From the NCBI GenBank assembly GCA_947625775.1, contig CANQPM010000009.1:88898-152897 (forward strand): a stretch of 64,000 nucleotides of DNA, written 5' to 3'. The position numbers and the translations under genes are program-made. Positions 6,561 through 45,525 of this stretch are shown one piece after another; position 1 is the stretch's first letter; each line of letters opens with the position of its first letter. Source of the stretch: an uncultured Lachnospiraceae bacterium. GTDB lineage: Bacteria > Bacillota > Clostridia > Lachnospirales > Lachnospiraceae. The notes below the pieces were generated by a model. That model was not told where the DNA came from and did not search any database. It worked only from the letters and a program-made list of their open reading frames with translations.

Positions 6561-6592
6561 AAATGCAACACTTTAAATAAAATGTTGCATTT
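6561..6592 (+). repeat. recombination site, locus 1 left
   Basis: Arms AAATGCAACA and TGTTGCATTT face each other around an AT-rich core. The reverse complement differs from the right site by one base, and the core reads TTTTATTTAA in that orientation. Confidence 0.88.
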
Positions 6593-6620
6593 TTAACGGT
6601 AATTTATCTTTACATTCTAT

Positions 6621-6647
6621 ATATCGGTTCATAATCGGAATACTTTA
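6621..6647 (-). promoter_or_regulatory. sigma-28 (SigD) flagellar promoter, locus 1, pointing away from fliC
   Basis: On the minus strand: TAAA at 6647-6644, 15-base spacer, ACCGATAT at 6628-6621. This matches the SigD consensus TAAA-N15-(G)CCGATAT. It lies inside the invertible segment and fires leftward out of it in this orientation. Confidence 0.88.
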
Positions 6648-6730
6648 CCCCTTATTTGAAAAATTTTTAATTTTATTTGAAAAAATTATTGCCTGATGTG
6701 ATTGAGATTGCCTTAAAATACCGTGGACAT

Positions 6731-6758
6731 CTTAAAAAAGGGCATAGCAGCCCCCTGG
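6731..6758 (-). terminator. terminator of recombinase 1
   Basis: On the minus strand GGGC-TGCTAT-GCCC is followed by TTTTTT. It lies between the recombinase stop and the sigma-28 promoter, separating the two transcription units within the cassette. Confidence 0.75.
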
Positions 6759-6844
6759 TGAAGCAGATCTTTCTTTAGAAAAGGGCATTTCACGCGCATA
6801 AAATATAAAATAACATAAGCTACGCTATTCAGAAAATTACACCG

Positions 6845-7435
6845 TCAGAGTGCAACCTTCATAAATACCCTATCGCGCTCGTCCTGGTCTATTCCAAGAT
6901 AGCGCTTTGTGATTGCAAATGACGAATGATTGTATATATTCATAATCAAAATCGAGGAAATTTTGCAGAGCGCGGCAAAATATCCAAAGGTTTTACGCAG
7001 TGAATGGCATCCGATGTTTCCCTCTATTTTTAGTATTTTGGAGGCTTCTTTTATAATCCTGTATGCCTGTGAGCGGCTAAGCGGCTTGTTTGCGCTCTTT
7101 CTTCCCAGAAAAATGTAGTGTTCCGCGCTGATTTTGACATTTTCGAGCTTGTAATGTTTCATCAGCTTTTCCAGCGCGTACAGTGCGCCTTTATTTAAAA
7201 ATATCATATTTTTCTTGTGTGTTTTCTTTTCCGTAAGCTCAAGGTGCTTCTTAAACCGACGTCTGTCAAAATCGTAAACATCTCCCCATTTTAAATTGAG
7301 AATATCGCTTATGCGCAGCGCGGTATTTATTCCTACGCAGAATAAGGCGTAATTGCGTATCTCATTTTTCCCTAAAAAGTATTTTTTCATTGCTTCTAAT
7401 TTCTTCCTGTTTTTAATAGGTGACATTGTTCCCAT
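6845..7435 (-). CDS. FimB-sized tyrosine recombinase, locus 1 invertase
   Basis: This 196-residue tyrosine recombinase would cut and rejoin the flanking inverted sites. Catalytic residues are visible: Arg41 (ALRISDIL), His144 and Arg147 (CHSLRKTFGY), His170 (NHSS) and the nucleophile Tyr179 (KRYLGI). It lacks a full N-terminal arm-binding domain, like the fimbrial switch recombinases FimB and FimE (about 200 residues). The gene is wholly inside the segment it is predicted to invert. It is the most diverged of the four copies in the window; paralogues are at 32839, 37491 and 42159. GAGGAAA precedes the ATG on the minus strand. Substrate specificity is inferred from position. Confidence 0.92.
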   Translation of the reverse strand: MGTMSPIKNRKKLEAMKKYFLGKNEIRNYALFCVGINTALRISDILNLKWGDVYDFDRRRFKKHLELTEKKTHKKNMIFLNKGALYALEKLMKHYKLENVKISAEHYIFLGRKSANKPLSRSQAYRIIKEASKILKIEGNIGCHSLRKTFGYFAALCKISSILIMNIYNHSSFAITKRYLGIDQDERDRVFMKVAL

Positions 7436-7510
7436 AATAATTTCCTCCCTAAACGCTTCCTTGCGTCAGTGCCTTTTAATTTTAGCACAGATTTGCCCGC
7501 CATAAATATC

Positions 7511-7542
7511 AAATGCAACATTTTATTTAAAATGTTGCATTT
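7511..7542 (+). repeat. recombination site, locus 1 right
   Basis: Arms AAATGCAACA and TGTTGCATTT around core TTTTATTTAA. Inverted partner of 6561-6592. TTGATA, a possible -35 for the recombinase, overlaps its outer left edge on the minus strand (7512-7507); I see no canonical -10 at 17 bases here, unlike loci 2-4. Confidence 0.88.
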
Positions 7543-7625
7543 GATAAAACCCATAAGATAAATCAAAGTGGATAGGCTTTCGGCAAGATGAATAAAAGCT
7601 GCAAAGAAAACAAGGAGGTTTTTAT

Positions 7626-7847
7626 ATGTTAATGCTTACAGTACCCAAGGAAGAGTATCTGATGATAGGAAAGGATGTAAGGATTACCTTTCTCGGTGGA
7701 AACAATAATCAATTGCGCGTGATGATAGATGCCCCAAAGGACGTGAATATAGCAAGAGGCAGGGCTATACAGAAACGTGCTGCCAAGCGGGCAGCAAAAA
7801 AGGCAGCGGCAGCAGCGGCGAAGGCAGAATCCGCAATAGAAGAATAA
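7626..7847 (+). CDS. csrA: CsrA-type translational regulator, locus 1
   Basis: CsrA binds GGA-containing hairpins in mRNA leaders and blocks translation; in Bacillus the target is the flagellin mRNA and FliW is the antagonist. Of the 73 residues, the first 50 match the family: LMIGKDVRITFLGG, then IDAPKDVNIARGRAI with Arg44 at the RNA-contact position. Position 6 is Val where many CsrA have Arg. The C-terminus is an unusual Ala/Lys-rich tail. AAGGAGG precedes the ATG. It lies between the invertible segment and the flagellin, so promoter inversion should co-express both. No fliW is seen in the window. Confidence 0.9.
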   Translation: MLMLTVPKEEYLMIGKDVRITFLGGNNNQLRVMIDAPKDVNIARGRAIQKRAAKRAAKKAAAAAAKAESAIEE

Positions 7848-8054
7848 TCCAAATAATTAAAGGGTTAATAACCGCAGCCGCCTGTAAAAGCAGGCGCGCC
7901 GATATACGGGCGGCTTCGGATATTATAAATTAAAACTGAATAAGGAACAAAAAACAAACGGTGGGAAACGGAATTTTCCACGGCACAGCCAAAGCGCGGA
8001 TTTACTTATGTAAATTAAACCCAGGCGCGGCAGGCAAAACAAGGAGGTAAGATT
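7848..8054 (+). promoter_or_regulatory. structured csrA-fliC leader with CsrA-type hairpin, locus 1
   Basis: Two conserved elements occur. The first is a 10-bp stem at 7876-7885 / 7906-7915, with AAGCAGGCGCGCC in its loop, right after csrA. The second is a hairpin at 7961-7981 with an up to 8-bp stem and ACGGAA in the loop, a GGA-in-loop CsrA site. Loci 2-4 have the same structures with compensating base changes. A further GGA lies in the ribosome binding site before fliC. Confidence 0.75.
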
Positions 8055-9503
8055 ATGGTAGTACAGCACAATTTACAGGCAATGAACTCTAACAGAATGT
8101 TAGGTATCACACAGGGAACATTATCAAAGTCAACAGAGAAGCTTTCTTCTGGTTATAAGATTAACCGCGCGGCAGATAACGCAGCAGGTCTTGCTATATC
8201 AGAGAAGATGAGAAAACAGATCAGAGGACTTACACAGGCATCTGCAAACGCTGAGGACGGTATTTCATCTGTACAGACAGCAGAAGGCGCTTTGACAGAA
8301 GTACATGATATGCTTCAGAGAATGAACGAGCTTGCAGTACAGGCAGCAAACGGCACGAACTCACAGGACGACCGCTCATATATTCAGGATGAGATTGATC
8401 AGCTTACACAAGAGATTGACCGTGTGGCAGAGACAACCAAGTTCAATGAGACATACCTGTTAAAAGGCGATAAGGACAATGAGAAAGGATACAGCTTTGC
8501 ATACAAGAAGGCAGGGGCTGATGCGGGTGCCTCAGCAACAATGGTAAAAGATGCAGCTACAGAGGCTACAGCTAAGGTGACTTTTGCAACTAATGTAACA
8601 TCGACAGATGATCAGAACAACTTGGCAAAAGCTCTCCGGGATCAGGGACTTACTATTACATCTTCTACGGTAAATGGTAAACCTCAGATATCTATCGAAC
8701 TTAACGGCAGTGATGCAAAGAGCAATTATCAGATTAAAGTAACAGATCTTGATAACGGTCAATTTGAGATAGTAAATTTGGAAGGTAAAAAGGTTGCGGA
8801 TATTGAAGTAACTAAGGGTCAGCTTCAAGCAGGGGATAGTGTTGTAATTACAGCATCTACAGTAGCTGCAGCCACAAGTAAGAATGAAGTTTATTCATTC
8901 TATGACAAAGACGGAAACAGAATTTCAGCAAACGCTTTGGGCGACTATTTCACAGCAAGCGGCGGTACAGATGCTGATCCCTCAACTGGTGTAAGTGCAA
9001 AAGCAAGAGCAGACGCAGGAAAGGTTTATGATGCACTTGGAAAAGAAATTGAGCTTAAAGAAGACAATATTACGGCGACAAAGGATAAAATGGCGGCTCT
9101 CAACCTCAAGTTCCATGTAGGTGCTGATGGGACGAACAATAACAAGATTTCTATTAACATTGAAGCTCTTACGGCTAAGGGACTTGGTATAAATGGCTTA
9201 AAGGTTGATGGAGAAGATGGCGCTAGTGCTACAAAGGCAATTTCTGTAATTGCACAGGCTGTTAAGATTGTATCAACCCAGCGTTCAGCGCTCGGTGCAG
9301 TACAGAACCGCTTAGAGCATACGATCAACAACCTAGATAACATTGTAGAGAACACGACATCTGCAGAGTCAGCAATCCGTGATACAGATATGGCTGATGA
9401 GATGGTTAGGTACTCTAACAACAACATTCTTTCACAGGCAGGACAGTCAATGCTCGCACAGGCTAACCAGTCTAACCAGGGCGTACTCTCATTACTCGGC
9501 TAA
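8055..9503 (+). CDS. fliC: flagellin, locus 1 (482 residues)
   Basis: Flagellin polymerises into the flagellar filament. The conserved N-terminal D0/D1 region (about 1-140, MVVQHNLQAMNSNRMLG onward, with the QRMNELAVQAANGT helix) and C-terminal D1/D0 region (about 375-482, ending AQANQSNQGVLSLLG) are intact. The middle (about 145-370) is variable and shorter than in the other three copies. AAGGAGG precedes the ATG and may double as a CsrA site. Expression in this orientation should be low, since the only sigma-28 promoter nearby points the other way. It is closely related at both ends to the flagellins at 34067, 38718 and 43354. Confidence 0.96.
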   Translation: MVVQHNLQAMNSNRMLGITQGTLSKSTEKLSSGYKINRAADNAAGLAISEKMRKQIRGLTQASANAEDGISSVQTAEGALTEVHDMLQRMNELAVQAANGTNSQDDRSYIQDEIDQLTQEIDRVAETTKFNETYLLKGDKDNEKGYSFAYKKAGADAGASATMVKDAATEATAKVTFATNVTSTDDQNNLAKALRDQGLTITSSTVNGKPQISIELNGSDAKSNYQIKVTDLDNGQFEIVNLEGKKVADIEVTKGQLQAGDSVVITASTVAAATSKNEVYSFYDKDGNRISANALGDYFTASGGTDADPSTGVSAKARADAGKVYDALGKEIELKEDNITATKDKMAALNLKFHVGADGTNNNKISINIEALTAKGLGINGLKVDGEDGASATKAISVIAQAVKIVSTQRSALGAVQNRLEHTINNLDNIVENTTSAESAIRDTDMADEMVRYSNNNILSQAGQSMLAQANQSNQGVLSLLG

Positions 9504-32641: not shown

Positions 32642-32668
32642 ATATCGGTTATTGTCTGAAATACTTTA
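32642..32668 (-). promoter_or_regulatory. sigma-28 promoter, locus 2, pointing away from fliC
   Basis: Minus strand TAAA (32668-32665), 15 bases, ACCGATAT (32649-32642). Inside the invertible segment. Confidence 0.9.
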
Positions 32669-32838: not shown

Positions 32839-33429
32839 CTAAAGCGCAATCTTCATAAATACCTCGTCGCGTTCGTCCTGCTCTATGCCCAGATAGCGGC
32901 GTGTTATCGGGAATGATGAGTGGTTAAAGATATTCATAAGCATTGTAGATGGAATACCCATGCGCGCGGCAAAGTAGCCAAAGGTCTTTCTTAGCGAATG
33001 GCAGCCGATATTTCCCGCTATTTTCAACACTTTTGCGGCGCCGCTTATAATGCGGTATGCCTGCGAGCGGCTCAGCGGCTTGCCTGTGTGCTTTTTCCCA
33101 GTAAATATAAAATCGTTTTCTTTTATTGGCAGGCGGCTTTTGCTACAATATGTCAGCAGCTTTTTTAAGGCATTTAACGCTTCCTTATTTAAAAATATTG
33201 AGGATGCCTTTTTTGTCTTTTGCTCTCTTAGCTGCAGGTGTTTTTTAAATGAGCGGCATTTAAAGTCATATACGTCTTTCCAGCGCAGGCTTAAAATGTC
33301 GCTTATGCGCAGAGCGGTATTAATTCCTACGCAGAACAGCGTGTAGTTTCTTATCTCATTTTTTCCCAAAAAGTATTTTTTCATAGCTTCCAGCTCTCTT
33401 TTGTCCTTGATAGGCGACATCGTACTCAT
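32839..33429 (-). CDS. FimB-sized tyrosine recombinase, locus 2 invertase
   Basis: A 196-residue recombinase starting MSTMSPIKDKRELEAM. Catalytic positions Arg41, His144, Arg147, His170 and Tyr179 are as in the locus 1 copy (ALRISDIL, CHSLRKTFGY, NHSS, RRYLGI). Overall it is much closer to the locus 3 and 4 enzymes than to locus 1. Divergence from its paralogues is concentrated in residues 55-115 (for example CSKSRLPIKENDFIFTGKKH), a stretch that could contribute to site choice. It is predicted to invert its own flanking sites. Confidence 0.92.
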   Translation of the reverse strand: MSTMSPIKDKRELEAMKKYFLGKNEIRNYTLFCVGINTALRISDILSLRWKDVYDFKCRSFKKHLQLREQKTKKASSIFLNKEALNALKKLLTYCSKSRLPIKENDFIFTGKKHTGKPLSRSQAYRIISGAAKVLKIAGNIGCHSLRKTFGYFAARMGIPSTMLMNIFNHSSFPITRRYLGIEQDERDEVFMKIAL

Positions 33430-33479: not shown

Positions 33480-33508
33480 AATATAATTCGTTTCACGGCA
33501 AATATCAA
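33480..33508 (-). promoter_or_regulatory. sigma-A-like promoter of recombinase 2
   Basis: Minus strand TTGATA (33508-33503), 17 bases, TATATT (33485-33480), about 50 bases before the recombinase ATG. The -35 overlaps the edge of the right site, so recombinase binding could repress its own gene. Confidence 0.75.
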
Positions 33509-33538
33509 ATGCAACATTCTGGCTAATTTGTCGCATTC
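33507..33538 (+). repeat. recombination site, locus 2 right
   Basis: AAATGCAACATTCTGGCTA then a diverged outer arm TTTGTCGCATTC. Inverted partner of 32579-32610. Confidence 0.88.
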
Positions 33539-33590
33539 GGAAATTTATCCGCAAAAGCGCATTTTTCACGAAAAACAAGGAGGTTTTTAT

Positions 33591-33860
33591 ATGCTGATGC
33601 TCACAGTGCCAAAGGAAGAATATCTGATGATAGGAAAAAATGTCAAAATCACTTTTCTTGGGGGAAACAACAACCAGCTGCGGCTGATGATAGACGCACC
33701 CAAGGAGGTAAACATCGCAAGGGGCAGGGCAATCCAAAAGCGCGCGGTAAAGCGCAGGAACGCGGCGTTGCAACAGGCGCATGCGCAGGAAGAAAGCGGC
33801 GCGGAGGCTTCAATTGAAAAAGCGGAGGAAATTTCCGCTGAAAAAGCGCAGGAGGCGTAG
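33591..33860 (+). CDS. csrA: CsrA-type translational regulator, locus 2
   Basis: An 89-residue CsrA (MLMLTVPKEEYLMIGKNVKI, IDAPKEVNIARGRAI with Arg44). The core is followed by an extra 38-residue Lys/Ala/Glu tail with AEEISAEKAQEA. The protein is identical to the locus 3 copy. I start at ATG 33591 after AAGGAGG; the longer frame begins in the recombination site. Predicted to repress translation of the adjacent flagellin. The tail may bind a partner such as FliW, which is speculation. Confidence 0.9.
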   Translation: MLMLTVPKEEYLMIGKNVKITFLGGNNNQLRLMIDAPKEVNIARGRAIQKRAVKRRNAALQQAHAQEESGAEASIEKAEEISAEKAQEA

Positions 33861-34066: not shown

Positions 34067-36085
34067 ATGGTAGTACAGCACAATTTACAGGCAATCAATT
34101 CTAACAGAATGTTAGGCATCACACAGGGAACGCTTTCAAACTCTACAGAAAAGCTTTCGTCAGGGTATAAGATTAACCGTGCGGCAGACAACGCAGCGGG
34201 CTTGACAATTTCAGAGAAGATGAGAAAGCAGATTAGAGGACTTACACAGGCATCTACAAACGCAGAGGATGGCGTATCAGCGGTACAGACAGCAGAAGGC
34301 GCGCTGACAGAGGTTCATGATATGCTGCAGAGAATGAACGAGCTTGCAGTGCAAGCGGCAAATGGCACAAACTCAGAGTCAGACCGTCAGGCCATACAGG
34401 ATGAGATAGACCAGCTTGTAACAGAAGTAGACCGCGTATCAGAGACAACAAAGTTTAATGAGATTTACCTGTTAAAGGGAAATTCAGAAGGCACAACGGA
34501 AGAAATGAAAGTTAATGCTCATGATGCAGGTATTAAAGGCACATTGTTGGACAAAGGCAATACGGCAGTATTTTCTTTGGGGAAGGCACTGGAAGATGGC
34601 GATAAAATTAATGTGGCTGGTGAGGAGTATACTATCGGTGGAGAAAAAAAGCAGGCTCCAGGTGAGATTCTTGATCCAAGAAAGATGAGAAATGACACTG
34701 ATGGGTATGTGGATTATGATACGACGGCTAATTTTGGTGATGTTGTTGGATTTAAAGCAGGTGACAGTTTCACTGTAAATGGTGAGACATATACGATGAC
34801 AGATAAGATTGCACTGGATGAAATTGAATTTACAACTACAGGTGATGTAACTACATTCCAGATAGGAGAAAGATACTATCAACTGGGTGCGACTAATGAT
34901 TATGGTGAAGGTGCAAGTAAAGATGGACTTACTAGCGCTAATGCTTGGACAGTAGATGAAGAAACAGCTAAGAAACTTATAAAGAAAGCAATAGATGAAG
35001 AACAGCAAGTCACTATAACTGACAATGCTACGATAGGTGGAGTTGACATTGCTAATCCAACGCAGGTTGTTTTAGAACATGCTGAAAATGAAATTTTCGT
35101 ACAGGCAGGCGACAAATTGCAGGATTTGGCAAAAAAAGTATTGGATGATGCTGCTTATACAATGCAGATAGGCGACAGCTACACAAAAATTAATGATGAC
35201 GGTGAGGCGGAAACAATTATTGGAGTAGAAAATCCACAATCTGCAAAAGCTACATATACAGCTATCAAAGCCCTTGCTGACGACGATTATGTTATCTTGG
35301 GAACAGCGGAAGATGCAAAGAAGTATACTATTATTGCTGATGATGAAGAAGAAGATCTTGCGTCATATAAGCTTCATAAGGACACTATTCTTTCAATGAT
35401 TCATGACGGAGATGTGGTAGGCGTAAATTCGATCACTCTAAAAACTGTTATTGGAGACATTGGCGTACCTGAATCAGAGGAAAACGGCACTGAAGAAGCA
35501 ACTATCAGTGCAGAGGAAGCGTATGAGAAAATTGCGGAAGAACTGACAAAGGCGAGTAGCATCGGCGCAGACGAGGGCAAAGAGGCAACTGTAGAAAGCG
35601 ACGGAGAAGGAAACTTTACAATCACAAAGGGCTCAACCAATGTAACAGAGCCGCTCTCTTTTAACCTCCATGTTGGAGCAGACGCTGACATGACGAATAA
35701 GATAGGTGTTGACATTAATGCAATGAGCGCAAAAGGTCTTGGTATACAGAACTTGAAGGTTGTTGCAGTAGATGACAGCGGTAAGACAATTAATGACGGT
35801 GGTATGAACGCAACGTACGCAGTTGATGCAATTGCAGACGCAATCGCGAAAGTATCTGCACAGCGTTCAGCTCTTGGCGCGGTACAGAACCGCTTAGAGC
35901 ATACAATTAAGAATCTTGACAACGTAGTAGAGAACACCACGGCAGCAGAATCACGTATTCGTGATACGGATATGGCAACGGAGATGGTTAGATATTCTAA
36001 CAACAATATCCTTGCACAGGCAGGCCAGTCAATGCTCGCGCAGGCTAACCAGTCTAACCAGGGCGTACTCTCATTACTTGGCTAA
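34067..36085 (+). CDS. fliC: flagellin, locus 2 (672 residues)
   Basis: Filament protein with conserved ends: N-terminal D0/D1 (about 1-145, MVVQHNLQAINSNRMLGITQ) and C-terminal D1/D0 (about 560-672, ending AQANQSNQGVLSLLG). The long centre (about 150-555) is acidic and variable and would form the exposed outer domains. It shares stretches with locus 3 (KALEDGDKIN-AGEEYTIG, KLHKDTILSMIHDGDVV) but is otherwise diverged. AAGGAGG precedes the ATG. Predicted silent in the shown orientation. Confidence 0.96.
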   Translation: MVVQHNLQAINSNRMLGITQGTLSNSTEKLSSGYKINRAADNAAGLTISEKMRKQIRGLTQASTNAEDGVSAVQTAEGALTEVHDMLQRMNELAVQAANGTNSESDRQAIQDEIDQLVTEVDRVSETTKFNEIYLLKGNSEGTTEEMKVNAHDAGIKGTLLDKGNTAVFSLGKALEDGDKINVAGEEYTIGGEKKQAPGEILDPRKMRNDTDGYVDYDTTANFGDVVGFKAGDSFTVNGETYTMTDKIALDEIEFTTTGDVTTFQIGERYYQLGATNDYGEGASKDGLTSANAWTVDEETAKKLIKKAIDEEQQVTITDNATIGGVDIANPTQVVLEHAENEIFVQAGDKLQDLAKKVLDDAAYTMQIGDSYTKINDDGEAETIIGVENPQSAKATYTAIKALADDDYVILGTAEDAKKYTIIADDEEEDLASYKLHKDTILSMIHDGDVVGVNSITLKTVIGDIGVPESEENGTEEATISAEEAYEKIAEELTKASSIGADEGKEATVESDGEGNFTITKGSTNVTEPLSFNLHVGADADMTNKIGVDINAMSAKGLGIQNLKVVAVDDSGKTINDGGMNATYAVDAIADAIAKVSAQRSALGAVQNRLEHTIKNLDNVVENTTAAESRIRDTDMATEMVRYSNNNILAQAGQSMLAQANQSNQGVLSLLG

Positions 36086-37307: not shown

Positions 37308-37334
37308 ATATCGGTTATTGTTTAAAATACTTTA
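37308..37334 (-). promoter_or_regulatory. sigma-28 promoter, locus 3, pointing toward the Rpn-like gene
   Basis: Minus strand TAAA (37334-37331), 15 bases, ACCGATAT (37315-37308). In this orientation it fires toward the minus-strand gene at 36206-37036. Confidence 0.9.
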
Positions 37335-37410: not shown

Positions 37411-37430
37411 AAAAAAGGCATAGTTATGCC
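37411..37430 (-). terminator. terminator of recombinase 3
   Basis: Minus strand GGCAT-AACT-ATGCC followed by TTTTTT. Confidence 0.75.
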
Positions 37431-37490: not shown

Positions 37491-38081
37491 CTAAAGCGCT
37501 ATCTGCATAAACACTTCATCGCGCTCGTCCTGCTCTATGCCCAGATAGCGCCTTGTGATTGGAAATGATGAATGGTTGAAAATATTCATAATCAGCACGG
37601 AAGAAATACCCCTGCGCGCCGCGAAATAGCCAAAGGTTTTTCTGAGCGAATGACAGCCGATATTTCCAGCTATTTTCAATACTCTGGCTGCGCCGTTTAT
37701 AATGCGGTACGCTTGGGAGCGACTCATTGGCTTTCCTGTATTTTCCCTTCCGACAAATATAAAGCTGTTTTCTTTTATATGCATTTTGCCTCGGCTAAGG
37801 TGCGAAAATAGCTTTTTTAGGGCCTTTACAGCCTCTTTATTTAGAAATACCTCATTTCTTTTCCTCGTTTTTTGCTCCCTTATCTGTAAATGCTTTTTGA
37901 ATGAATGGCTTTTAAAATCATATACGTCTCCCCAGCGCAGCTTCAAAAGATCGCTTATGCGCAAGGCGGTATTGATGCCTACGCAAAACAGCGCATAATT
38001 TCTTATTTCGTTTTTTCTCAAAAAGTATTTTTTCATAGCATCCAGCTCTCTTTTGTCCTTGATAGGTGACATTGTACTCAT
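37491..38081 (-). CDS. FimB-sized tyrosine recombinase, locus 3 invertase
   Basis: A 196-residue recombinase (MSTMSPIKDKRELDAMKKYF) with Arg41, His144, Arg147, His170 and Tyr179 conserved. It is closest to the locus 4 copy. I start at 38081 after GAGAGGGG; the frame continues upstream to 38168 but that extension would run into the recombination site. Predicted to act on its own flanking sites. Confidence 0.92.
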   Translation of the reverse strand: MSTMSPIKDKRELDAMKKYFLRKNEIRNYALFCVGINTALRISDLLKLRWGDVYDFKSHSFKKHLQIREQKTRKRNEVFLNKEAVKALKKLFSHLSRGKMHIKENSFIFVGRENTGKPMSRSQAYRIINGAARVLKIAGNIGCHSLRKTFGYFAARRGISSVLIMNIFNHSSFPITRRYLGIEQDERDEVFMQIAL

Positions 38082-38130: not shown

Positions 38131-38159
38131 AATATAATTCGTTCTGCGGCAGATATCAA
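38131..38159 (-). promoter_or_regulatory. sigma-A-like promoter of recombinase 3
   Basis: Minus strand TTGATA (38159-38154), 17 bases, TATATT (38136-38131). The -35 touches the right recombination site. Confidence 0.75.
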
Positions 38160-38189
38160 ATGCAACATTCTGTTTAAATTGTCGCATTC
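38158..38189 (+). repeat. recombination site, locus 3 right
   Basis: AAATGCAACATTCTGTTTA, then AATTGTCGCATTC. Inverted partner of 37246-37277. Confidence 0.88.
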
Positions 38190-38241
38190 GGAAATTTATC
38201 CGCAAAAGCGCATTTTTCACGAAAAACAAGGAGGTTTTTAT

Positions 38242-38511
38242 ATGCTGATGCTCACAGTGCCAAAGGAAGAATATCTGATGATAGGAAAAAATGTCAAAAT
38301 CACTTTTCTTGGGGGAAACAACAACCAGCTGCGGCTGATGATAGACGCACCCAAGGAGGTAAACATCGCAAGGGGCAGGGCAATCCAAAAGCGCGCGGTA
38401 AAGCGCAGGAACGCGGCGTTGCAACAGGCGCATGCGCAGGAAGAAAGCGGCGCGGAGGCTTCAATTGAAAAAGCGGAGGAAATTTCCGCTGAAAAAGCGC
38501 AGGAGGCGTAG
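38242..38511 (+). CDS. csrA: CsrA-type translational regulator, locus 3
   Basis: The 89-residue protein is identical to locus 2 CsrA, including the 38-residue C-terminal extension. The DNA from about 38179 into the start of the flagellin is almost the same as the locus 2 copy, pointing to recent duplication or gene conversion. ATG 38242 follows AAGGAGG. Confidence 0.9.
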   Translation: MLMLTVPKEEYLMIGKNVKITFLGGNNNQLRLMIDAPKEVNIARGRAIQKRAVKRRNAALQQAHAQEESGAEASIEKAEEISAEKAQEA

Positions 38512-38717
38512 CAGCCGCAGGCAGTGATAATAGCTGAATACAGTCCGTCAAAGCAGGCGCGCCAAAAGGCGGACTGTATTCGGATTATTATATACAACTG
38601 AATATTGAAAACAATGTAACTCAAAAACAAACGGCGGGAAACGGAAATTTCCGCGGCACGGCTAAGGCGCAGGATTGGAAAATTATAAAGCGCCAAGGCG
38701 GACAAGGAGGTAATTTT
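38512..38717 (+). promoter_or_regulatory. structured csrA-fliC leader, locus 3
   Basis: Same elements as locus 2: 12-bp stem 38536-38547 / 38570-38581 and the GGA hairpin at 38634-38654. One C-to-T change in the hairpin replaces a G-C pair by G-T, keeping the stem. Confidence 0.8.
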
Positions 38718-40712
38718 ATGGTAGTACAGCACAATTTACAGGCAATGAACTCTAACCGTATGCTCGGCATTACACAGGGAACACTTTCAAAATCAACAGA
38801 AAAGCTTTCATCAGGCTACAAGATTAACCGCGCGGCAGACAACGCGGCAGGCTTGGCTATATCTGAGAAGATGAGAAAACAGATAAGAGGACTTACACAG
38901 GCTTCTGCAAACGCTGAGGATGGTATCAGCGCAGTACAGACAGCAGAAGGCGCATTGACAGAGGTGCATGATATGCTTCAGAGAATGAATGAGCTTGCAA
39001 ATCAGGCAGCGAATGGTACACAGTCAGCGACAGACCGCCAGTACATTCAAGACGAGATTTCACAGCTTACGACAGAGATTGACCGTGTATCTGAAACGAC
39101 CAAGTTCAATGAGATTTATCTGTTAAAAGGTAATGAGGAAGGCGTTTATAAGGAAACAAAGGCAAATGCACATGACGCTGGTATCAATGGCAAACTTGTG
39201 GATAACGGAAACACGGCTGTTTTCTCACTTGAGAAGGCACTGGAGGATGGTGACAAAATCAACATTGCGGGAGAAGAATATACAATAGGTGAGACAAACG
39301 CTGGAGGAGCACTTCCAGGTGAAGTCCTGAAGCGTAAGGATATGAATACCAGTACAGACGGTTACGCGGATTTGGAAACAGCAGGTGATTTTACAGATTT
39401 GGATACACTGGGGGCTGGGGACAGCTTCACGGTTGATGGGGAAACATATACATTGACGGATAAGATTGCACAAGATGATATTACTTGGGCAACAGATGAT
39501 ACTTTTAAAATAGGTGATGTTACTTATACGATTGTAGCAGATGCTGATGTTGATAAAGATGCTCATAAGATTACAGCCGACGATGCAAAAAAGGTTATAT
39601 CAGATGCTTTAGAAGCAGGGCAGCAAGTGTACGCAACGAAATTTACGACTACAAAGGAAGACGGGACGGCAAGTGCTTCAATTACGACTCCGACACAGAT
39701 TGTTTCTGAGTACGCTAAAAATGAAGTCAGCATGGTTGGCACTACAGACAAAAAGTTATCAACTTATGCCAAGAAAGCAAATGCAGGCGAGGCGGTTACA
39801 TTCGAGCCAGGCGACAGCTACACAAAAGACGGCAAAACAATAACTGCTGTAAATAAGCCGACTGCTGCGCGTGCTGTTTATGATGAGCTTATAGCACTTG
39901 ATAAAGATGGAAGCAAGACGATTACAATTGGAACTGGTGAGGATGCTAAAGAATATACTATCATTGGCGACGGTGATGAGGAGGATGCCGATTCTTATAA
40001 GCTTCATTTAGACACTATACTGTCAATGATTCATGATGGTGATGTGGTAAATTATACTGGCGCTGCGAATGCGGTAACTGTTATCGGCGATATAGGCGCA
40101 CCTGCGGAGGATGCAGCGGATGAAAAGACCATCAGCGCAGAGGAAGCATACGCCAAAATTACAGAGGAATTGCAGAAAGCAAGCAGCATCGGTACAGATG
40201 AGGGCAAAGAAGCTTCTGTAAAGAGCGACGGCAAAGGAAACTTCACAATCACAAAGGGTTCAATCACTGTAAAGGATGACCTTAATTTTAACCTTCACGT
40301 AGGTGCAGACGCTGACATGACAAACAAAATTGGCGTTAGCATCAAGGCAATGAGCACAGCAGGTCTTGGTGTAAAGGACTTGAAGGTAACTGCCGTTGAC
40401 GAAAATGGAAAAGCAATAAATGACGACGGTATCGCTGCGACATATGCAATCGACGCAATCTCAGACGCAATCGAGACAGTTTCAAGACAGCGTTCGGCAC
40501 TTGGCGCTGTTCAGAACAGACTGGAGCACACAATCAAGAACCTCGATAACGTAGTAGAGAATACACAGAGCGCAGAGTCTGCAATCCGTGACACAGATAT
40601 GGCTGACGAGATGGTTAAATACTCTAACAACAACATTCTCGCACAGGCAGGTCAGTCAATGCTCGCACAGGCTAACCAGTCTAACCAGGGCGTACTCTCA
40701 TTACTTGGCTAA
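38718..40712 (+). CDS. fliC: flagellin, locus 3 (664 residues)
   Basis: The flagellin has intact D0/D1 ends (MVVQHNLQAMNSNRMLG at the N-terminus; AQANQSNQGVLSLLG at the C-terminus). The variable centre (about 145-550) is alignable in part with locus 2 but has different sequence over most of its length. AAGGAGG precedes the ATG. At the DNA level the near-identity with locus 2 stops within the first 30 bases of the gene, after which many silent differences appear. Predicted silent in this orientation. Confidence 0.96.
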   Translation: MVVQHNLQAMNSNRMLGITQGTLSKSTEKLSSGYKINRAADNAAGLAISEKMRKQIRGLTQASANAEDGISAVQTAEGALTEVHDMLQRMNELANQAANGTQSATDRQYIQDEISQLTTEIDRVSETTKFNEIYLLKGNEEGVYKETKANAHDAGINGKLVDNGNTAVFSLEKALEDGDKINIAGEEYTIGETNAGGALPGEVLKRKDMNTSTDGYADLETAGDFTDLDTLGAGDSFTVDGETYTLTDKIAQDDITWATDDTFKIGDVTYTIVADADVDKDAHKITADDAKKVISDALEAGQQVYATKFTTTKEDGTASASITTPTQIVSEYAKNEVSMVGTTDKKLSTYAKKANAGEAVTFEPGDSYTKDGKTITAVNKPTAARAVYDELIALDKDGSKTITIGTGEDAKEYTIIGDGDEEDADSYKLHLDTILSMIHDGDVVNYTGAANAVTVIGDIGAPAEDAADEKTISAEEAYAKITEELQKASSIGTDEGKEASVKSDGKGNFTITKGSITVKDDLNFNLHVGADADMTNKIGVSIKAMSTAGLGVKDLKVTAVDENGKAINDDGIAATYAIDAISDAIETVSRQRSALGAVQNRLEHTIKNLDNVVENTQSAESAIRDTDMADEMVKYSNNNILAQAGQSMLAQANQSNQGVLSLLG

Positions 40713-40933: not shown

Positions 40934-41785
40934 GTGTCGGAAGACACACAGGAAGTCAAGGCGAAACGAACTGCAAAGAACAGCGTGTTTCTTGACCTTT
41001 TTCAAAATAAAAGTTATTTGTTGAAGCTGTACCAGACGCTTCATCCAGAAGATAAAGAAGCAACAGAGGAGTCGCTTACTGATGTAACTATCGAAAATGT
41101 ATTAACGGACAATCTCTATAATGATTTAGGCTTTATTGTCCACAACAAACTTATGATACTTGTAGAGGCGCAGTCCACATGGACGATGAATATTTTAGTT
41201 CGGATTCTGCTATATTTGGCGCAAAGCTATCATGAATATTTTCAGCGTACCAGACAAGACTATTATAAAAGTCGGAAAGTAAAGATGCCAAAGCCAGAGC
41301 TTTATGTGATATTCACGGGAAACAAAGGACAAAAACCTGATAAAATATTATTATCGGAAGAATTTTTTGATGGCGCGGATATTGACATTGAAGTGAAAGC
41401 AAAGGTCATTTATGAGAGTGATACGGATGACATAATCAACCAGTACATCATTTTCTGCAAAGTGTTTAACGAGCAGACAAGGCAGCATGGAATGACGCGG
41501 AAAGCTGTTATGGAAACAATTCGGGTATGCAGGGACCAGAATGTGCTGTGTGATTATCTGGCAGAGCGCGAAAGGGAGGTTGTGACAATTATGATGAGTT
41601 TGTTTGATGAAGAACAGATCATTAAATCATTTATCAGAAGTGAGAGGCATGATGAAGCAAGGGAAACTGCTGAAAGAATGATAAGGGACGGCGAACTTTC
41701 TCTCGATAAAATTGCGCATTATATACCGTCTTTATCAATGGACGAATTGAAGGAGTTGGAAGCTGAGATTATGCAGATGGCATAA
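40934..41785 (+). CDS. Rpn-like PD-(D/E)XK nuclease-family protein
   Basis: A 283-residue Rpn-family protein. Asp64 (YNDLGFIV) and Glu78-Ala-Gln80 (LVEAQST) form the D...ExQ motif. The C-terminus is helical (ARETAERMIRDGELSLDKIA). GTG start preceded by GAGGTGA. It follows flagellin 3 in the same direction with its own apparent transcription region between. The outward sigma-28 promoter of cassette 4 faces this gene from downstream and would make antisense RNA across it while flagellin 4 is OFF. Confidence 0.82.
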   Translation: MSEDTQEVKAKRTAKNSVFLDLFQNKSYLLKLYQTLHPEDKEATEESLTDVTIENVLTDNLYNDLGFIVHNKLMILVEAQSTWTMNILVRILLYLAQSYHEYFQRTRQDYYKSRKVKMPKPELYVIFTGNKGQKPDKILLSEEFFDGADIDIEVKAKVIYESDTDDIINQYIIFCKVFNEQTRQHGMTRKAVMETIRVCRDQNVLCDYLAEREREVVTIMMSLFDEEQIIKSFIRSERHDEARETAERMIRDGELSLDKIAHYIPSLSMDELKELEAEIMQMA

Positions 41786-41961: not shown

Positions 41962-41988
41962 ATATCGGTTATTGTTCAAAATACTTTA
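41962..41988 (-). promoter_or_regulatory. sigma-28 promoter, locus 4, pointing away from fliC
   Basis: Minus strand TAAA (41988-41985), 15 bases, ACCGATAT (41969-41962). Confidence 0.9.
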
Positions 41989-42065: not shown

Positions 42066-42086
42066 AAAAAAGGCATAGTTATGCCA
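42066..42086 (-). terminator. terminator of recombinase 4
   Basis: Minus strand GGCAT-AACT-ATGCC followed by TTTTTT. Confidence 0.72.
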
Positions 42087-42158: not shown

Positions 42159-42749
42159 CTAAAGCGCTATCCGCATAAACACTTCATCGCGCTCGTCCTG
42201 CTCTATGCCCAGATAGCGCCTTGTGATTGGAAATGATGAGTGGTTGAAAATATTCATAATCATCACGGCGGAAATCCCCCTGCGCGCCGCGAAATAGCCA
42301 AAGGTTTTCCTAAGTGAATGACAGCCGATATTCCCAGCTATTTTCAATACTCTGGCGGCGCCGTTTATGATGCGGTACGCCTGAGAGCGGCTCAGCGGCT
42401 TGCCCGTATTTTCCCTTCCGACAAATATAAAGCTGTTTTCCCTTATCGGCGTATTGCCTCGGTTAAAGTGCGCAAACAGCTTCTTTAAGGCTTTCACGGC
42501 TTCCTTATTTAAAAGTATTTCGTTTCTCTTTTTCGTTTTTTGTTCCCTTATCTGCAAATGCCTTTTAAATGAATGGCTTTTAAAATCATACACATCTTTC
42601 CAGCGCAGCTTCAAAAGATCGCTTATGCGCAGGGCGGTATTGATGCCTACACAAAACAGCGCATAATTTCTTATCTCATTTTTCCCCAGAAAATATTTTT
42701 TCATAGCCTCCAGCTCTCTTTTGTCCTTGATAGGCGACATTGTACTCAT
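42159..42749 (-). CDS. FimB-sized tyrosine recombinase, locus 4 invertase
   Basis: A 196-residue recombinase (MSTMSPIKDKRELEAMKKYF) with Arg41, His144, Arg147, His170 and Tyr179. It is very similar to the locus 3 enzyme. The start is ATG 42749 after GAGAGGGG; the open frame reaches 42836 but that part overlaps the promoter and recombination site. Predicted to invert 41900-42857. Confidence 0.92.
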   Translation of the reverse strand: MSTMSPIKDKRELEAMKKYFLGKNEIRNYALFCVGINTALRISDLLKLRWKDVYDFKSHSFKRHLQIREQKTKKRNEILLNKEAVKALKKLFAHFNRGNTPIRENSFIFVGRENTGKPLSRSQAYRIINGAARVLKIAGNIGCHSLRKTFGYFAARRGISAVMIMNIFNHSSFPITRRYLGIEQDERDEVFMRIAL

Positions 42750-42798
42750 AGCTTTACCCCTCTCTAAACGTTTCCTTTCGTTAGATTTCCTTTCCTTA

Positions 42799-42827
42799 AT
42801 ATTAATTCGTTTTGCGGCAGATATCAA
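42799..42827 (-). promoter_or_regulatory. sigma-A-like promoter of recombinase 4
   Basis: Minus strand TTGATA (42827-42822), 17 bases, TAATAT (42804-42799). The -35 touches the right site. Confidence 0.75.
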
Positions 42828-42857
42828 ATGCAACATTCTGCCCAGATTGTCGCGCAG
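42826..42857 (+). repeat. recombination site, locus 4 right
   Basis: AAATGCAACATTCTGCCCA, then GATTGTCGCGCAG. Inverted partner of 41900-41931. Confidence 0.86.
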
Positions 42858-42909
42858 GCGGTCAAAGCCGGCGGAATGGGCATTTATAGGAAAACAAGGA
42901 GGTTTTTAT

Positions 42910-43149
42910 ATGCTAATGCTTACATTACCAAAGGAAGAATACCTGCTGATAGGCAAGGACATCAAAATTACTTTTCTCGGAGGCAACAACAACCAGCTGA
43001 GGCTGATGATAGATGCGCCGCGGGAGGTAAACGTCGCAAGAGGCAGGGCAATCAAAAAACGCGCTGAAAAGCGCAGAAACGCGGCGCTGAAAAAAGCACA
43101 GGAGGAAAGCGGCGCTGATATTTCCACTGGAAAAGCGCAGGAGGCATAG
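42910..43149 (+). CDS. csrA: CsrA-type translational regulator, locus 4
   Basis: A 79-residue CsrA (MLMLTLPKEEYLLIGKDIKI, IDAPREVNVARGRAI with Arg44) with a shorter Lys/Ala/Glu tail than loci 2 and 3. AAGGAGG precedes ATG 42910. It sits between cassette 4 and flagellin 4 and should be co-transcribed with it after inversion. Confidence 0.9.
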   Translation: MLMLTLPKEEYLLIGKDIKITFLGGNNNQLRLMIDAPREVNVARGRAIKKRAEKRRNAALKKAQEESGADISTGKAQEA

Positions 43150-43353
43150 CAGCCGCAGGCAGTGATAATAGCCGAATACAGCCCATACAAGCAGGCGCGC
43201 CAAAAAATGAGCCGTATTCGGATTATTATATACAACTGAATATTGAAAACAATGTAACTCAAAAACAAACGGCGGGAAACGGAAATTTCCGCGGCAGGGC
43301 TAAGGCGCAGAGGTTGGAAATTATGAAGCGCCAAGGCAGACAAGGAGGTATTT
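43150..43353 (+). promoter_or_regulatory. structured csrA-fliC leader, locus 4
   Basis: Stem 43172-43186 / 43207-43221 with two mismatches and the same AAGCAGGCGCGCC loop. The GGA hairpin at 43272-43292 is identical to locus 3. The sequence between differs from loci 2-3 at several paired positions. Confidence 0.78.
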
Positions 43354-45525
43354 ATGGTAGTACAGCACAATTTACAGGCAATCAATTCTAACAGGCTTTT
43401 AGGCATTACGCAGGGAACGCTTTCAGGCTCTACAGAGAAGCTTTCCTCAGGCTACAAAATCAACCGTGCGGCAGACAACGCGGCAGGCTTGACAATTTCA
43501 GAGAAGATGAGAAAGCAGATTAGAGGACTCACACAGGCGTCTACAAACGCGGAGGACGGCGTTTCAGCAGTACAGACAGCAGAAGGTGCGCTGACAGAGG
43601 TGCATGACATGCTGCAGAGAATGAATGAGCTCGCGGTACAGGCATCAAACGGCACAAACTCAGAATCTGACCGTCAGGCAATTCAGGACGAGATAAGCCA
43701 GCTTACGACAGAGATTGACCGTGTAGCGGAGACGACGAAGTTCAACGAGATTTACTTGTTAAAGGGAAATGCAGACGGAACAAAGTCTGAGAATCTTGTA
43801 GCGGCTCATGACGCAGGTCTTGACGGAAAGCTTGTTGACAACGGCGACGGAACATATTCCTTCAAGCTTGAAGAAGCCCTTAAGGCTGGCGACAGTGTTA
43901 AGATTGGCGGACAGGAGTATGAGATTGGAGAGTCAAAGGATAAGCTGGACTATGTTTCCATATCAACAGTAACCAGCTGGGGAGAGGCAAAGGCTGCAGG
44001 CACGATTTATGACAGCACTATCGCCACCACTACTGTAGCTTCAAAGGCAGGTCAGGCAGCCGCGTTAAAGCTTAAAGACGGCGACAGCATAACAAACAGC
44101 AACGGCGAAAAGACAACATTTGTTGAAAAGCTTACGGCAGAGGATGTAATAAAGCATTTGACTGATGGCACTGGCACTGGCGACGCGACGGAATCGTGGA
44201 AAAACGGTGATTCCATTACCATAAAGGGCATTGACGGCACAATAACGACATATACAGTTAGTTCAAGCGCCACAGCTACTGATTTGGAAAGGGGAATAAT
44301 TAAAGCCAGTGAAGTAGGTGAAGCATTAACAAGTTTGCTGAAAGAGGGCACAGTAATCACCGACATAAATAATAAGCAGTATAAGGATCTCCTTGACGAT
44401 AATAAGGCTAACGACATAATAGGAATGAAAATAGAGAAGCTTGAGGAAGGCGAGGTAAATATATTCGCAACAAGCACCGACAATCAAAAAGCCTTAAAGG
44501 AGAACGCAATAGCTAAATACTACTCAGAGGCGGAGGTAGGAGACAAGATTGTACTTGGTGGCAAAGAGCAGCAGATTACAGCGGGTACTCCTTCTACATT
44601 TGACGATTTGAAATCCGCTCTTGAAAAGCTCGGCGAGGGCGCATGGGTTGTAGTAGGCGAGGACTCTCTTACAGGAAAGCCTAATGTATATCAGATAGGA
44701 ACAGGCAAGGGTGATGAGCCGCTTGAAAAGACAGTGGACGGCTATCAGAAGCTTACTGTAGACCAGATTCTCGCCAGAATTAAGGATGGCGATACAGTAA
44801 GGACATACAGCAAGACTAATACGGCAGGTCTGAAGGACGAAGGCACAAATGACGGTGTGAACAGTGTTATTACTGGCTCAACAATCCCTGACGGCAGACT
44901 TGATGCTATGCTCACCGCTGATATGCTTAAAAAGGCTGAAAAAGTATATACGGCATTAGACGGCAATAAGAAGAATATTACCACGGCGGAAGCCTATGAT
45001 ATGATGACGGAGGAGCTTGAAAAGGCAAGCTCAATCGGTACGGACAAGGCGGCGGAGGTAGAGCATTTGGGCGAAGGCAGCTTCAATATTAAGCAAGGCT
45101 CAGTAACCTACACGGATGCTTTGAATTTCAGCCTCCATGTAGGCGCTGACGCTGATATGACCAACAAGATTATGGTTAATATCGAGTCAATGAGCACGGC
45201 AGGACTTGGCATTAAGAATCTTAATGTAAAGGATGCGACAGGCGCAGCGGCGACATACGCAATCGACGCAATCGCAGACGCGGTTGCCAAGGTATCAGCG
45301 CAGCGCTCAGCTCTCGGTGCGGTACAGAACAGACTCGACCACACAATCAAGAACCTCGACAACGTAGTAGAGAACACCACAGCGGCAGAGTCACGCATCC
45401 GCGACACGGATATGGCTACAGAGATGGTACAATACTCTAACGCCAACATCCTCGCGCAGGCAGGCCAGTCAATGCTCGCGCAGGCTAACCAGTCTAACCA
45501 GGGCGTACTCTCATTACTTGGCTAA
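43354..45525 (+). CDS. fliC: flagellin, locus 4 (723 residues)
   Basis: The longest of the four flagellins. Conserved ends: MVVQHNLQAINSNRLLGITQ at the N-terminus and AQANQSNQGVLSLLG at the C-terminus. The central part (about 150-610) is mostly unlike loci 1-3, with phrases such as VSISTVTSWGEAKAAGTIYD, so its outer surface should be antigenically distinct. AAGGAGG precedes the ATG. Predicted silent in this orientation. cheD follows downstream, consistent with a motility neighbourhood. Confidence 0.96.
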   Translation: MVVQHNLQAINSNRLLGITQGTLSGSTEKLSSGYKINRAADNAAGLTISEKMRKQIRGLTQASTNAEDGVSAVQTAEGALTEVHDMLQRMNELAVQASNGTNSESDRQAIQDEISQLTTEIDRVAETTKFNEIYLLKGNADGTKSENLVAAHDAGLDGKLVDNGDGTYSFKLEEALKAGDSVKIGGQEYEIGESKDKLDYVSISTVTSWGEAKAAGTIYDSTIATTTVASKAGQAAALKLKDGDSITNSNGEKTTFVEKLTAEDVIKHLTDGTGTGDATESWKNGDSITIKGIDGTITTYTVSSSATATDLERGIIKASEVGEALTSLLKEGTVITDINNKQYKDLLDDNKANDIIGMKIEKLEEGEVNIFATSTDNQKALKENAIAKYYSEAEVGDKIVLGGKEQQITAGTPSTFDDLKSALEKLGEGAWVVVGEDSLTGKPNVYQIGTGKGDEPLEKTVDGYQKLTVDQILARIKDGDTVRTYSKTNTAGLKDEGTNDGVNSVITGSTIPDGRLDAMLTADMLKKAEKVYTALDGNKKNITTAEAYDMMTEELEKASSIGTDKAAEVEHLGEGSFNIKQGSVTYTDALNFSLHVGADADMTNKIMVNIESMSTAGLGIKNLNVKDATGAAATYAIDAIADAVAKVSAQRSALGAVQNRLDHTIKNLDNVVENTTAAESRIRDTDMATEMVQYSNANILAQAGQSMLAQANQSNQGVLSLLG

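What the first reader, a model, noticed from the sequence alone, without database searches (positions are those of the whole stretch)
6561..45525. Four parallel self-contained flagellin phase switches, each with its own invertible sigma-28 promoter, recombinase, csrA and flagellin
At four places the same order is seen: inverted 32-bp site, sigma-28 promoter, terminator, tyrosine recombinase, inverted site, csrA, structured leader, flagellin. The only flagellar-type promoter near each flagellin is inside the invertible segment and points away from the gene. Known flagellin switches (Salmonella Hin, the Clostridioides difficile flg switch) act on one operon. A set of four independent promoter inversions, each coupling a flagellin with a private CsrA, would allow up to 16 expression states. 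I am not aware of this exact arrangement being described.
Basis: partly seen in the sequence, partly recalled or inferred. Interest (0 to 1): 0.96.

Follow-up and report, generated by a model that had tools for sequence, protein, structure and literature searches.

The report
Parallel self-flipping flagellin switches
A bacterium of the family Lachnospiraceae, likely from the gut, carries at least six flagellin gene cassettes, each with its only flagellar promoter on a DNA segment that is predicted to flip by its own recombinase, which would let the cell swap the protein coat of its flagella in many combinations.

Summary
All four window loci have paired 32-bp sites enclosing a sigma-28-type promoter and a tyrosine recombinase, then csrA, a hairpin leader and a flagellin; the window's four strict promoter matches are the four inside the segments, all pointing away. 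The genome holds two more complete cassettes, one probably split across contigs, and one fixed-promoter flagellin. One cassette (C14) is ON; its paralogue C8 and a probable orthologue are OFF, the segment being reversed between matching flanks (far-side match only 20-30 bp). Of 80 related recombinases examined, 53 sit beside csrA; 39 of 40 readable promoters are OFF. New points: a 6-bp core identical in 17 of 17 site pairs but 1 of 34 cross-locus pairs, a probable locus address; a site that is a predicted terminator at the OFF exit only, 37 of 37 by T-run; a separate CsrA class paired in this genus with A[C/T]GGA hairpin leaders, where FliW-linked flagellins have two AAGGA hairpins. Eight literature searches found no description. 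Switching in cells, transcripts and CsrA binding are untested. New variant of a known kind.

The parts
6561..6592 (.). cassette 1 far-side recombination site (core TAAATA); predicted OFF-exit terminator on the minus strand
6621..6647 (-). cassette 1 sigma-28-type promoter, pointing away from csrA/flagellin (OFF)
6845..7435 (-). cassette 1 tyrosine recombinase, 196 aa
7511..7542 (.). cassette 1 csrA-side recombination site
7626..7847 (+). cassette 1 switch-class csrA, 73 aa, with ACAAGGAGGT at its ribosome-binding site
7848..8054 (+). cassette 1 flagellin leader: ACGGA hairpin plus ACAAGGAGGT at the ribosome-binding site
8055..9503 (+). cassette 1 flagellin, 482 aa
32579..32610 (.). cassette 2 far-side site (core TAGCCA)
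32642..32668 (-). cassette 2 sigma-28-type promoter (OFF)
32839..33429 (-). cassette 2 tyrosine recombinase, 196 aa
33480..33508 (-). cassette 2 promoter-like TTGATA-N17-TATATT for the recombinase, abutting the site's inner arm
   Evidence: consensus match only
33507..33538 (.). cassette 2 csrA-side site
33591..33860 (+). cassette 2 switch-class csrA, 89 aa
33861..34066 (+). cassette 2 flagellin leader with ACGGA hairpin
34067..36085 (+). cassette 2 flagellin, 672 aa
37246..37277 (.). cassette 3 far-side site (core TAAACA)
37308..37334 (-). cassette 3 sigma-28-type promoter (OFF)
37417..37430 (-). cassette 3 terminator-like hairpin between recombinase and promoter
37491..38081 (-). cassette 3 tyrosine recombinase, 196 aa from the conserved start
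38158..38189 (.). cassette 3 csrA-side site
38242..38511 (+). cassette 3 switch-class csrA, 89 aa, identical in protein to cassette 2
38512..38717 (+). cassette 3 flagellin leader with ACGGA hairpin
38718..40712 (+). cassette 3 flagellin, 664 aa
41900..41931 (.). cassette 4 far-side site (core TGGGCA)
41962..41988 (-). cassette 4 sigma-28-type promoter (OFF)
42072..42085 (-). cassette 4 terminator-like hairpin between recombinase and promoter
42159..42749 (-). cassette 4 tyrosine recombinase, 196 aa from the conserved start
42826..42857 (.). cassette 4 csrA-side site, outer arm strongly altered
42910..43149 (+). cassette 4 switch-class csrA, 79 aa
43150..43353 (+). cassette 4 flagellin leader with ACGGA hairpin
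43354..45525 (+). cassette 4 flagellin, 723 aa

Best explanation
These are parallel flagellin phase-variation cassettes, four in the window and two more complete ones in the genome, in which a 0.94-1.0-kb segment carrying a sigma-28-type promoter and a small tyrosine recombinase likely inverts between two 32-bp sites to turn a downstream csrA-flagellin pair on or off. OFF (all four in the window): the promoter points outward through the far site, whose palindrome plus outer U-run is predicted to act as an intrinsic terminator (prediction). ON (seen in C14): the promoter points through the csrA-side site, which lacks the U-run, into csrA, the leader and the flagellin (orientation shown; transcription inferred). 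The recombinase is inside the segment, so the switch is self-contained (shown by sequence; activity inferred). The 6-bp centre of the site matches within each pair and mostly differs between loci, so strand exchange is probably kept within a locus (pattern shown; role inferred from how tyrosine recombinases work). The CsrA between site and flagellin belongs to a class distinct from the FliW-linked CsrA and probably represses translation of its own csrA and flagellin mRNA by binding a GGA-loop hairpin and the CANGGAGG ribosome-binding site, i.e. each flip would install a flagellin together with its own translational governor (inferred).
For: Promoters only inside segments, 4 of 4, chance 0.17. 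Same segment in opposite orientation: L037 (C14) against L038 (C8) and against L045, segment in direct sense at 94% and 84% identity while the flanks match in reverse, over more than 2 kb on the csrA-flagellin side and 20-30 bp beyond the site on the far side. 53 of 80 examined recombinases have csrA beside them (52 of the 69 that score 178 bits or more), 45 with a flanking inverted-repeat pair, 37 with the promoter too; 39 OFF, 1 ON of 40 readable. Core identical in 17 of 17 pairs against 1 of 34 same-genome cross-locus pairs; 0 of 20000 permutations reach 17. OFF-exit hairpin more stable in 17 of 17 (mean -16.8 against -10.6 kcal/mol), T in the next 10 nt 7.4 against 1.8; wider set: more T on the far side in 37 of 37, 7.7 against 1.8 of 12. 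Recombinase columns R41, K71, H144, R147, H170, Y179 invariant in 40 sequences, fold nearest XerA. CsrA fold nearest CsrA/RsmA/RsmE. GGA-loop hairpin: 42 of 50 leaders at p<0.05; genus 32 of 32 switched leaders, 31 ACGGA and 1 ATGGA; 6 of 6 FliW-linked leaders within reach have two AAGGA hairpins each. Diagnostic CsrA columns in 23 FliW-linked against 54 others.
Against: No reads or cultures: inversion was never seen happening. Only 1 of 40 readable loci is ON; with 94%-identical C8/C14 segments and near-identical 32-bp repeats a wrong join in the assembly is possible, and the far-side flank match that anchors the comparison is only 20-30 bp. 27 of 80 recombinases had no csrA within range, and the nine loci fetched from the phylum search had neither csrA nor flagellin within about 1.5 kb, so the recombinase family as a whole is not specific to flagellin. 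Core privacy is not complete: two loci of one relative share TAGATA, and C22 shares TAAATA with cassette 1. Terminators and hairpins are predictions; cassette 1 keeps a stable csrA-side hairpin (-14.8). The leader-loop difference is not universal: outside the genus 5 of 17 switched leaders have no hairpin by the rule and 4 of the other 12 have AAGGA. Loss of N55 and of the canonical C-terminus argues against ordinary FliW control, so the regulator of the switch CsrA, if any, is unknown.
Confidence: 0.85

Rival explanations
1. The segments no longer invert; the promoters are stuck pointing outward and the flagellins are silent reserve genes, with C14 the product of one old inversion.
For: 39 of 40 readable promoters are OFF.
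Against: Searches report an in-frame stop in 1 of the 80 census recombinases (G345:C61; three more, C22, G310 and G183, are partial matches), and the catalytic columns are invariant in the 40 aligned; site cores stay identical within pairs while outer arms drift; flagellin ends stay 79-99% identical among the C19 and switch copies; C14 is opposite to both its paralogue and its probable orthologue.
Confidence: 0.07
2. The orientation of C14 is an assembly error, so no ON example exists here; the loci could still be switches but the direct comparison would be lost.
For: C8 and C14 segments are 94% identical and flanked by near-identical 32-bp repeats; C22/C16 suggests that the assembly does break in these loci.
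Against: C14 carries its own core TGGATA at both ends, the same as L045, while C8 carries TGGGTA; the locus lies inside a 104-kb contig.
Confidence: 0.1
3. The private CsrA works like Salmonella FljA: its main target is the mRNA of the fixed flagellin or of other flagellins, so turning a cassette on replaces the coat rather than adding to it.
For: Same logic as hin-fljBA, where FljA made with FljB blocks fliC mRNA translation (PMC2652032, passages); the fixed leader also carries GGA hairpins and ACAAGGAGGT.
Against: In the genus the FliW-linked leaders use AAGGA hairpins, 12 of 12, and the switched ones A[C/T]GGA, 32 of 32, which fits separate partners better; csrA lies upstream of its own flagellin, with its own leader.
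Confidence: 0.3
4. The unit between the sites is a mobile cassette that moves between loci, and inversion is a side effect.
For: Several copies per genome; cassettes 2 and 3 share a 98-100%-identical csrA-leader block starting at the site while their segments are 59-92% alike; an integrase gene lies beside C14.
Against: The sites of the 17 pairs read are inverted, not direct, so the recombinase would invert rather than excise; csrA and flagellin lie outside the segment.
Confidence: 0.06

Closest known systems
Salmonella hin-fljBA flagellar phase switch
   Same: Invertible segment with the promoter (and, recalled, its recombinase gene), flagellin downstream, a post-transcriptional flagellin repressor in the same transcript (PMC2652032 passages; serine recombinase named in PMC11868660 passages).
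   Different: Tyrosine, not serine, recombinase; six or seven cassettes, not one; CsrA-class regulator upstream of the flagellin instead of FljA downstream; sites predicted to double as terminators; locus-specific cores.
Clostridioides difficile flagellar (flg) switch with RecV
   Same: Tyrosine recombinase inverts a regulatory segment that governs flagella (PMC10889297 and PMC7446863 passages).
   Different: There a 154-bp segment with 21-bp repeats before the early flgB operon, turned by a RecV that also serves other switches; here ~1-kb segments with their own recombinase and a sigma-28-type promoter, acting on single csrA-flagellin units.
FimB/FimE fimbrial invertases of E. coli
   Same: Small tyrosine recombinases of about 200 aa; NCBIfam invertase models PRK09870/PRK09871 match below cut-off. 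That these models are FimB and FimE, and their fimbrial role, is recalled.
   Different: Scores 38-56 bits against cut-offs of 221-222, so not members; the recombinase here lies inside the segment.
FliW-CsrA-Hag flagellin homeostasis of Bacillus subtilis
   Same: CsrA blocks the ribosome-binding site of flagellin mRNA; near 1:1:1 stoichiometry (PMC6529632 passages; PMC7652899 passages).
   Different: Switch CsrA lacks asparagine 55 and the canonical C-terminus, and in this genus pairs with another leader loop; in this genome the single fliW lies beside another csrA.

Membership tests
Invertible-promoter flagellar phase switch (functional kind) | Promoter inside a segment bounded by inverted recombination sites | tested here: met
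Invertible-promoter flagellar phase switch (functional kind) | Both orientations of the same segment exist | tested here: met
   C14 ON against C8 and L045 OFF, across paralogue and probable orthologue, not within one culture
Invertible-promoter flagellar phase switch (functional kind) | Reversible inversion in living cells that changes flagellin expression | not testable with these tools
   no reads, no cultures
Hin/hix (serine invertase) family | Serine recombinase in the segment | tested here: not met
   the four window recombinases are Phage_integrase (tyrosine) family, Pfam over cut-off
FimB/FimE invertase subfamily | Score over the NCBIfam cut-off | tested here: not met
   38-56 bits against 221-222 (two proteins scanned)
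C. difficile flg switch | Segment placed before the flgB operon | tested here: not met
   the window segments lie before csrA-flagellin units
C. difficile flg switch | Recombinase orthologous to RecV | not tested
   no RecV sequence was compared
Tyrosine recombinase superfamily | Catalytic-domain fold and conserved R-K-H-R-H-Y | tested here: met
   invariant R41, K71, H144, R147, H170, Y179 in 40 sequences (that these are the catalytic residues is recalled); fold nearest XerA
CsrA family (Pfam PF02599) | Pfam cut-off and CsrA fold | tested here: met
   61.6 and 62.2 bits against 27, all four over cut-off; fold of cassette 1 CsrA
CsrA equivalog (NCBIfam) | Score over the equivalog cut-off | tested here: not met
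   46.7 against 73 and 34.9 against 70.1 (one protein)
FliW-controlled CsrA | Asparagine 55 and canonical C-terminus (role of N55 recalled; FliW binding the CsrA C-terminus) | tested here: not met
   N55 in 22 of 22 FliW-linked CsrA that reach it, 0 of 54 others (one of the 54, L151, was read out of register)

The most novel reading that the evidence does not exclude
Gut Lachnospiraceae carry an addressable, combinatorial flagellin-coat switch: each cassette is a self-contained inverton whose recombination site serves at once as crossover point, locus address (6-bp core) and OFF-state terminator, and each flip installs a flagellin together with a second, FliW-independent class of CsrA that, in this genus, reads its own A[C/T]GGA leader code, separate from the AAGGA code of the FliW-CsrA housekeeping flagellin, so two insulated translational governors run in one cell.
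Probability: 0.4. Interest if true: 0.93.

Novelty: new variant of a known kind. Interest (0 to 1): 0.85.

Why it matters
Flagellins of gut Eubacterium and Roseburia have been studied as pro-inflammatory proteins (PMC3720852, passages), and the words recombinase and phase variation do not occur in that paper's main text. If these cassettes switch, flagellin protein abundance cannot be read from gene content in bacteria that carry them, and antibody or receptor studies need the switch state. The site-as-terminator design and a second CsrA/leader pairing are compact regulatory ideas that can be tested directly, and the orientation can be scored in existing long-read metagenomes.

Tried and rejected
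Static relics, assembly error, mobile cassette and FljA-like cross-repression were weighed as rivals (see there). I looked for ON loci in relatives: of 40 readable only C14 is ON; a wider phylum search gave recombinases whose nine fetched loci had no csrA or flagellin within about 1.5 kb, so it added no examples. C22 and C16 were tested as the two halves of one locus by comparing with relatives: the C22 segment half and the C16 flagellin both match L053, but their outer flanks do not, so the pairing of the two contigs stays an inference. A search of 5.8 billion proteins with the recombinase alignment gave 7985 relatives among 7997 scored, 120 listed, the few named ones only as 'tyrosine-type recombinase/integrase'; it did not add function. 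Literature: searched for flagellin with invertible promoters, invertons, recombinase, csrA, Lachnospiraceae or Roseburia and phase variation; none listed a multi-cassette flagellin switch of this kind. Searches were for CsrA-FliW and hin-fljA background. The library holds open-licence papers only, so absence there is weak evidence.

Rows dropped: 80 of 87 distinct recombinase matches were examined in the census; seven weak genus matches (two in G020, three in G001, one each in G025 and G030) were not fetched with wide flanks. The close-group site test used 17 pairs; L047 (no right site found), L121 and C22/C16 were left out. In one search the csrA-side dyad of cassette 4 and of L126 was placed in the wrong register; cassette 4 is read correctly. 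Leader counts use the 49 loci where csrA and flagellin were both within reach; one of the 32 genus leaders (L127) belongs to a second csrA behind the switch-adjacent one. Of 23 FliW loci fetched only 6 had a flagellin within reach, one of them (L205) without a strict promoter match. In one search one of the 54 non-FliW CsrA (L151) was read out of register. The hairpin p-values use 200 single-base shuffles each. Most loci are related by descent, so the counts are not independent events.

Full report
What is there. The window is part of contig C9 of a 3.75-Mb genome in 42 contigs, 98.8% complete. Its nearest named relatives, which match genomes G033-G035 of the same genus by contig position, are Lachnospiraceae MAGs labelled 'Lapin', i.e. 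probably from rabbit gut (that reading is mine). At four places there is the order far site, sigma-28-type promoter (minus), recombinase (minus), csrA-side site, csrA, leader, flagellin. Segments are 982, 960, 944 and 958 bp. The promoter pattern TAAA-N14-17-CCGATAT occurs four times in 64 kb, all four inside segments and all pointing away from the flagellin (0.17 expected). Genome-wide, of 29 matches to a looser pattern, eight begin TAAAGTATT: in the four window cassettes, C8, C14, C22 and the fixed locus C19 (read from its list).

The rest of the genome. Six recombinases of this type are complete and one is cut by a contig end. C14 has a complete cassette with recombinase, promoter, csrA and flagellin all on the same strand: ON. 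C8 has the same cassette OFF, with an identical CsrA protein. C22 starts inside a segment and C16 starts at a flagellin ribosome-binding site, so a seventh cassette is probably split between them. C19 holds fliW and csrA with a fixed sigma-28-type promoter before a flagellin; the genes before them look like flgK and flgL (my reading). FliW occurs once in the genome. C5 has a distant flagellin without such a promoter. Apart from C5, the flagellins are 85-99% identical over the first 140 residues and 79-98% over the last 90, but 20-80% in the middle, which is what coat variation needs.

Has inversion happened? L037 (C14) and L038 (C8) match in reverse over 2.1 kb on the csrA-flagellin side and over 30 bp beyond the far site, while the segment between the sites matches in the direct sense at 94%. 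The same holds for L037 and L045, a locus of another species with the same core TGGATA: segment direct at 84%, csrA-flagellin side and the next gene in reverse, 20 bp beyond the far site in reverse. So this segment has lain in both orientations relative to its csrA-flagellin. The far-side anchor is short, and this is evolutionary, not cell-level, evidence.

How general is it? Searches with the recombinase gave matches in 24 of 38 genomes of the genus and 36 of 397 drawn from the family, E at or below 1e-30, own genome counted in both. Of 87 distinct matches I examined 80: 53 have csrA beside them (52 of the 69 scoring 178 bits or more, 1 of 11 below), 48 have an inverted-repeat pair, 45 both, 37 also the strict promoter. 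The promoter direction could be read at 40: 39 OFF, 1 ON. Two loci, L153 and L163, have the recombinase turned the other way inside the segment but are still OFF. In the phylum 39 of 398 genomes had a match at 1e-45 (own genome included, only part of the candidates scored); the nine fetched loci had neither csrA nor flagellin within about 1.5 kb. So a broad recombinase family seems to have a flagellin-switch branch in Lachnospiraceae.

The site as address. In 17 complete site pairs of the close group, the six bases at positions 14-19 of the 32-bp site are identical within every pair. Between loci of one genome they are identical in 1 of 34 pairs; no permutation of 20000 reached 17. For the six complete cassettes of this genome the cores are all different: TAAATA, TAGCCA, TAAACA, TGGGCA, TGGATA, TGGGTA; the split locus C22 shares TAAATA with cassette 1. 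That tyrosine recombinases need matching sequence between cleavage points is established knowledge (recalled); locus privacy is the inference.

The site as terminator. The far outer arm restores a full palindrome with the promoter-side inner arm and is followed by a T-run; the csrA-side outer arm is often altered and has no T-run. In the OFF exit the modelled RNA hairpin is more stable in 17 of 17 loci (mean -16.8 against -10.6 kcal/mol) and the next ten bases hold 7.4 against 1.8 T. In the wider set the far side has more T in 37 of 37 (7.7 against 1.8 of 12; A 2.6 against 4.9), and a better palindrome in 34, equal in 2, worse in 1. This holds in 20 of 20 loci outside the closest group (T count). 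I read it as a design in which the OFF promoter fires into its own recombination site and stops there; termination itself is a prediction.

The private CsrA. Among 54 CsrA of the recombinase loci, one of them (L151) read out of register, leucine 4 is kept in 45 and arginine 44 in 53; position 6 is valine, leucine or isoleucine in 54 where the 23 FliW-linked ones have arginine; lysine 45 and asparagine 55 never occur, against 23 of 23 and 22 of 22 readable. Cassette 1 CsrA passes Pfam's CsrA cut-off but not NCBI's equivalog ones, and its model is closest to CsrA, RsmA and RsmE structures. That N55 matters for FliW is recalled; that FliW binds the CsrA C-terminus is in a review (PMC7652899, passages).

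The leader code. Between csrA and flagellin 42 of 50 leaders (the fixed C19 one included) have a hairpin with GGA in its loop at p below 0.05, although the stems differ in sequence between lineages. In the genus 32 of 32 switched leaders have one such hairpin, 31 with ACGGA and 1 with ATGGA; the 6 FliW-linked leaders within reach, of 23 FliW loci fetched, have two each, all AAGGA. In the wider family 12 of 17 switched leaders have one: 7 ACGGA, 4 AAGGA, 1 ATGGA, so the loop difference is a rule of this genus, not of the family. The ribosome-binding site reads CA[A/C/T]GGAGG in 47 of 49 switched leaders and AAAGGAGG in 2. A GGA in a hairpin loop upstream plus one at the ribosome-binding site is a described arrangement of CsrA-repressed mRNAs, with the loop bases of ANGGAN affecting affinity (PMC7652899, passages). 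Two CsrA classes with two loop types in one cell suggest two separate governors; the FliW-linked loci are orthologous, so their agreement is not six independent events.

Compared with what is known. In logic it is closest to Salmonella hin-fljBA, but with a different recombinase class, many copies, a different regulator and the site features above. It differs from the C. difficile flg switch in size, target, promoter and recombinase location. The FliW-CsrA-Hag homeostat of B. subtilis, with near 1:1:1 stoichiometry (PMC6529632, passages), suggests why a new flagellin might bring its own CsrA.

Verdict. New variant of a known kind, high interest.

Noticed in passing
33539-34098 and 38190-38749: Cassettes 2 and 3 share a csrA-leader block that is 98-100% identical and begins at the recombination site, while their segments are only 59-92% alike; module exchange or gene conversion with a border at the site.
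   Followed up: partly
L037:123-1268: A full-length phage-type integrase gene ends about 120 bp before the far site of the ON cassette on C14.
   Followed up: no
33480-33508, 38131-38159, 42799-42827: A promoter-like TTGATA box for the recombinase abuts the inner arm of the csrA-side site in cassettes 2-4, so bound recombinase might repress its own gene (consensus match only).
   Followed up: no
L053:7218-7403: The flagellin of this OFF cassette, at the place matching cassette 1 in another species, is seen only as a 62-aa open stretch; it may be broken or misassembled.
   Followed up: no
L054:2276-7569: Three flagellin genes in a row follow one switch, each with its own CsrA-like ribosome-binding site.
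   Followed up: no
L153 and L163: Segments with the recombinase pointing toward csrA and the promoter at the other end, still OFF; a second internal layout with GTAACA-type sites.
   Followed up: partly
L040:3179-4952 and L048:14813-16586: A stretch downstream of the C16 flagellin matches a stretch on the far side of the L048 switch, pointing to a rearrangement around these loci.
   Followed up: no
36206-37036 and 40934-41785: Two open reading frames between cassettes; the first weakly resembles PD-(D/E)XK transposase-like nucleases, below cut-off, the second has no Pfam match.
   Followed up: no
L183:1253-2219: A related recombinase outside the family lies between 53-bp near-perfect inverted repeats with no csrA or flagellin found in the 3.6 kb held.
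   Followed up: no
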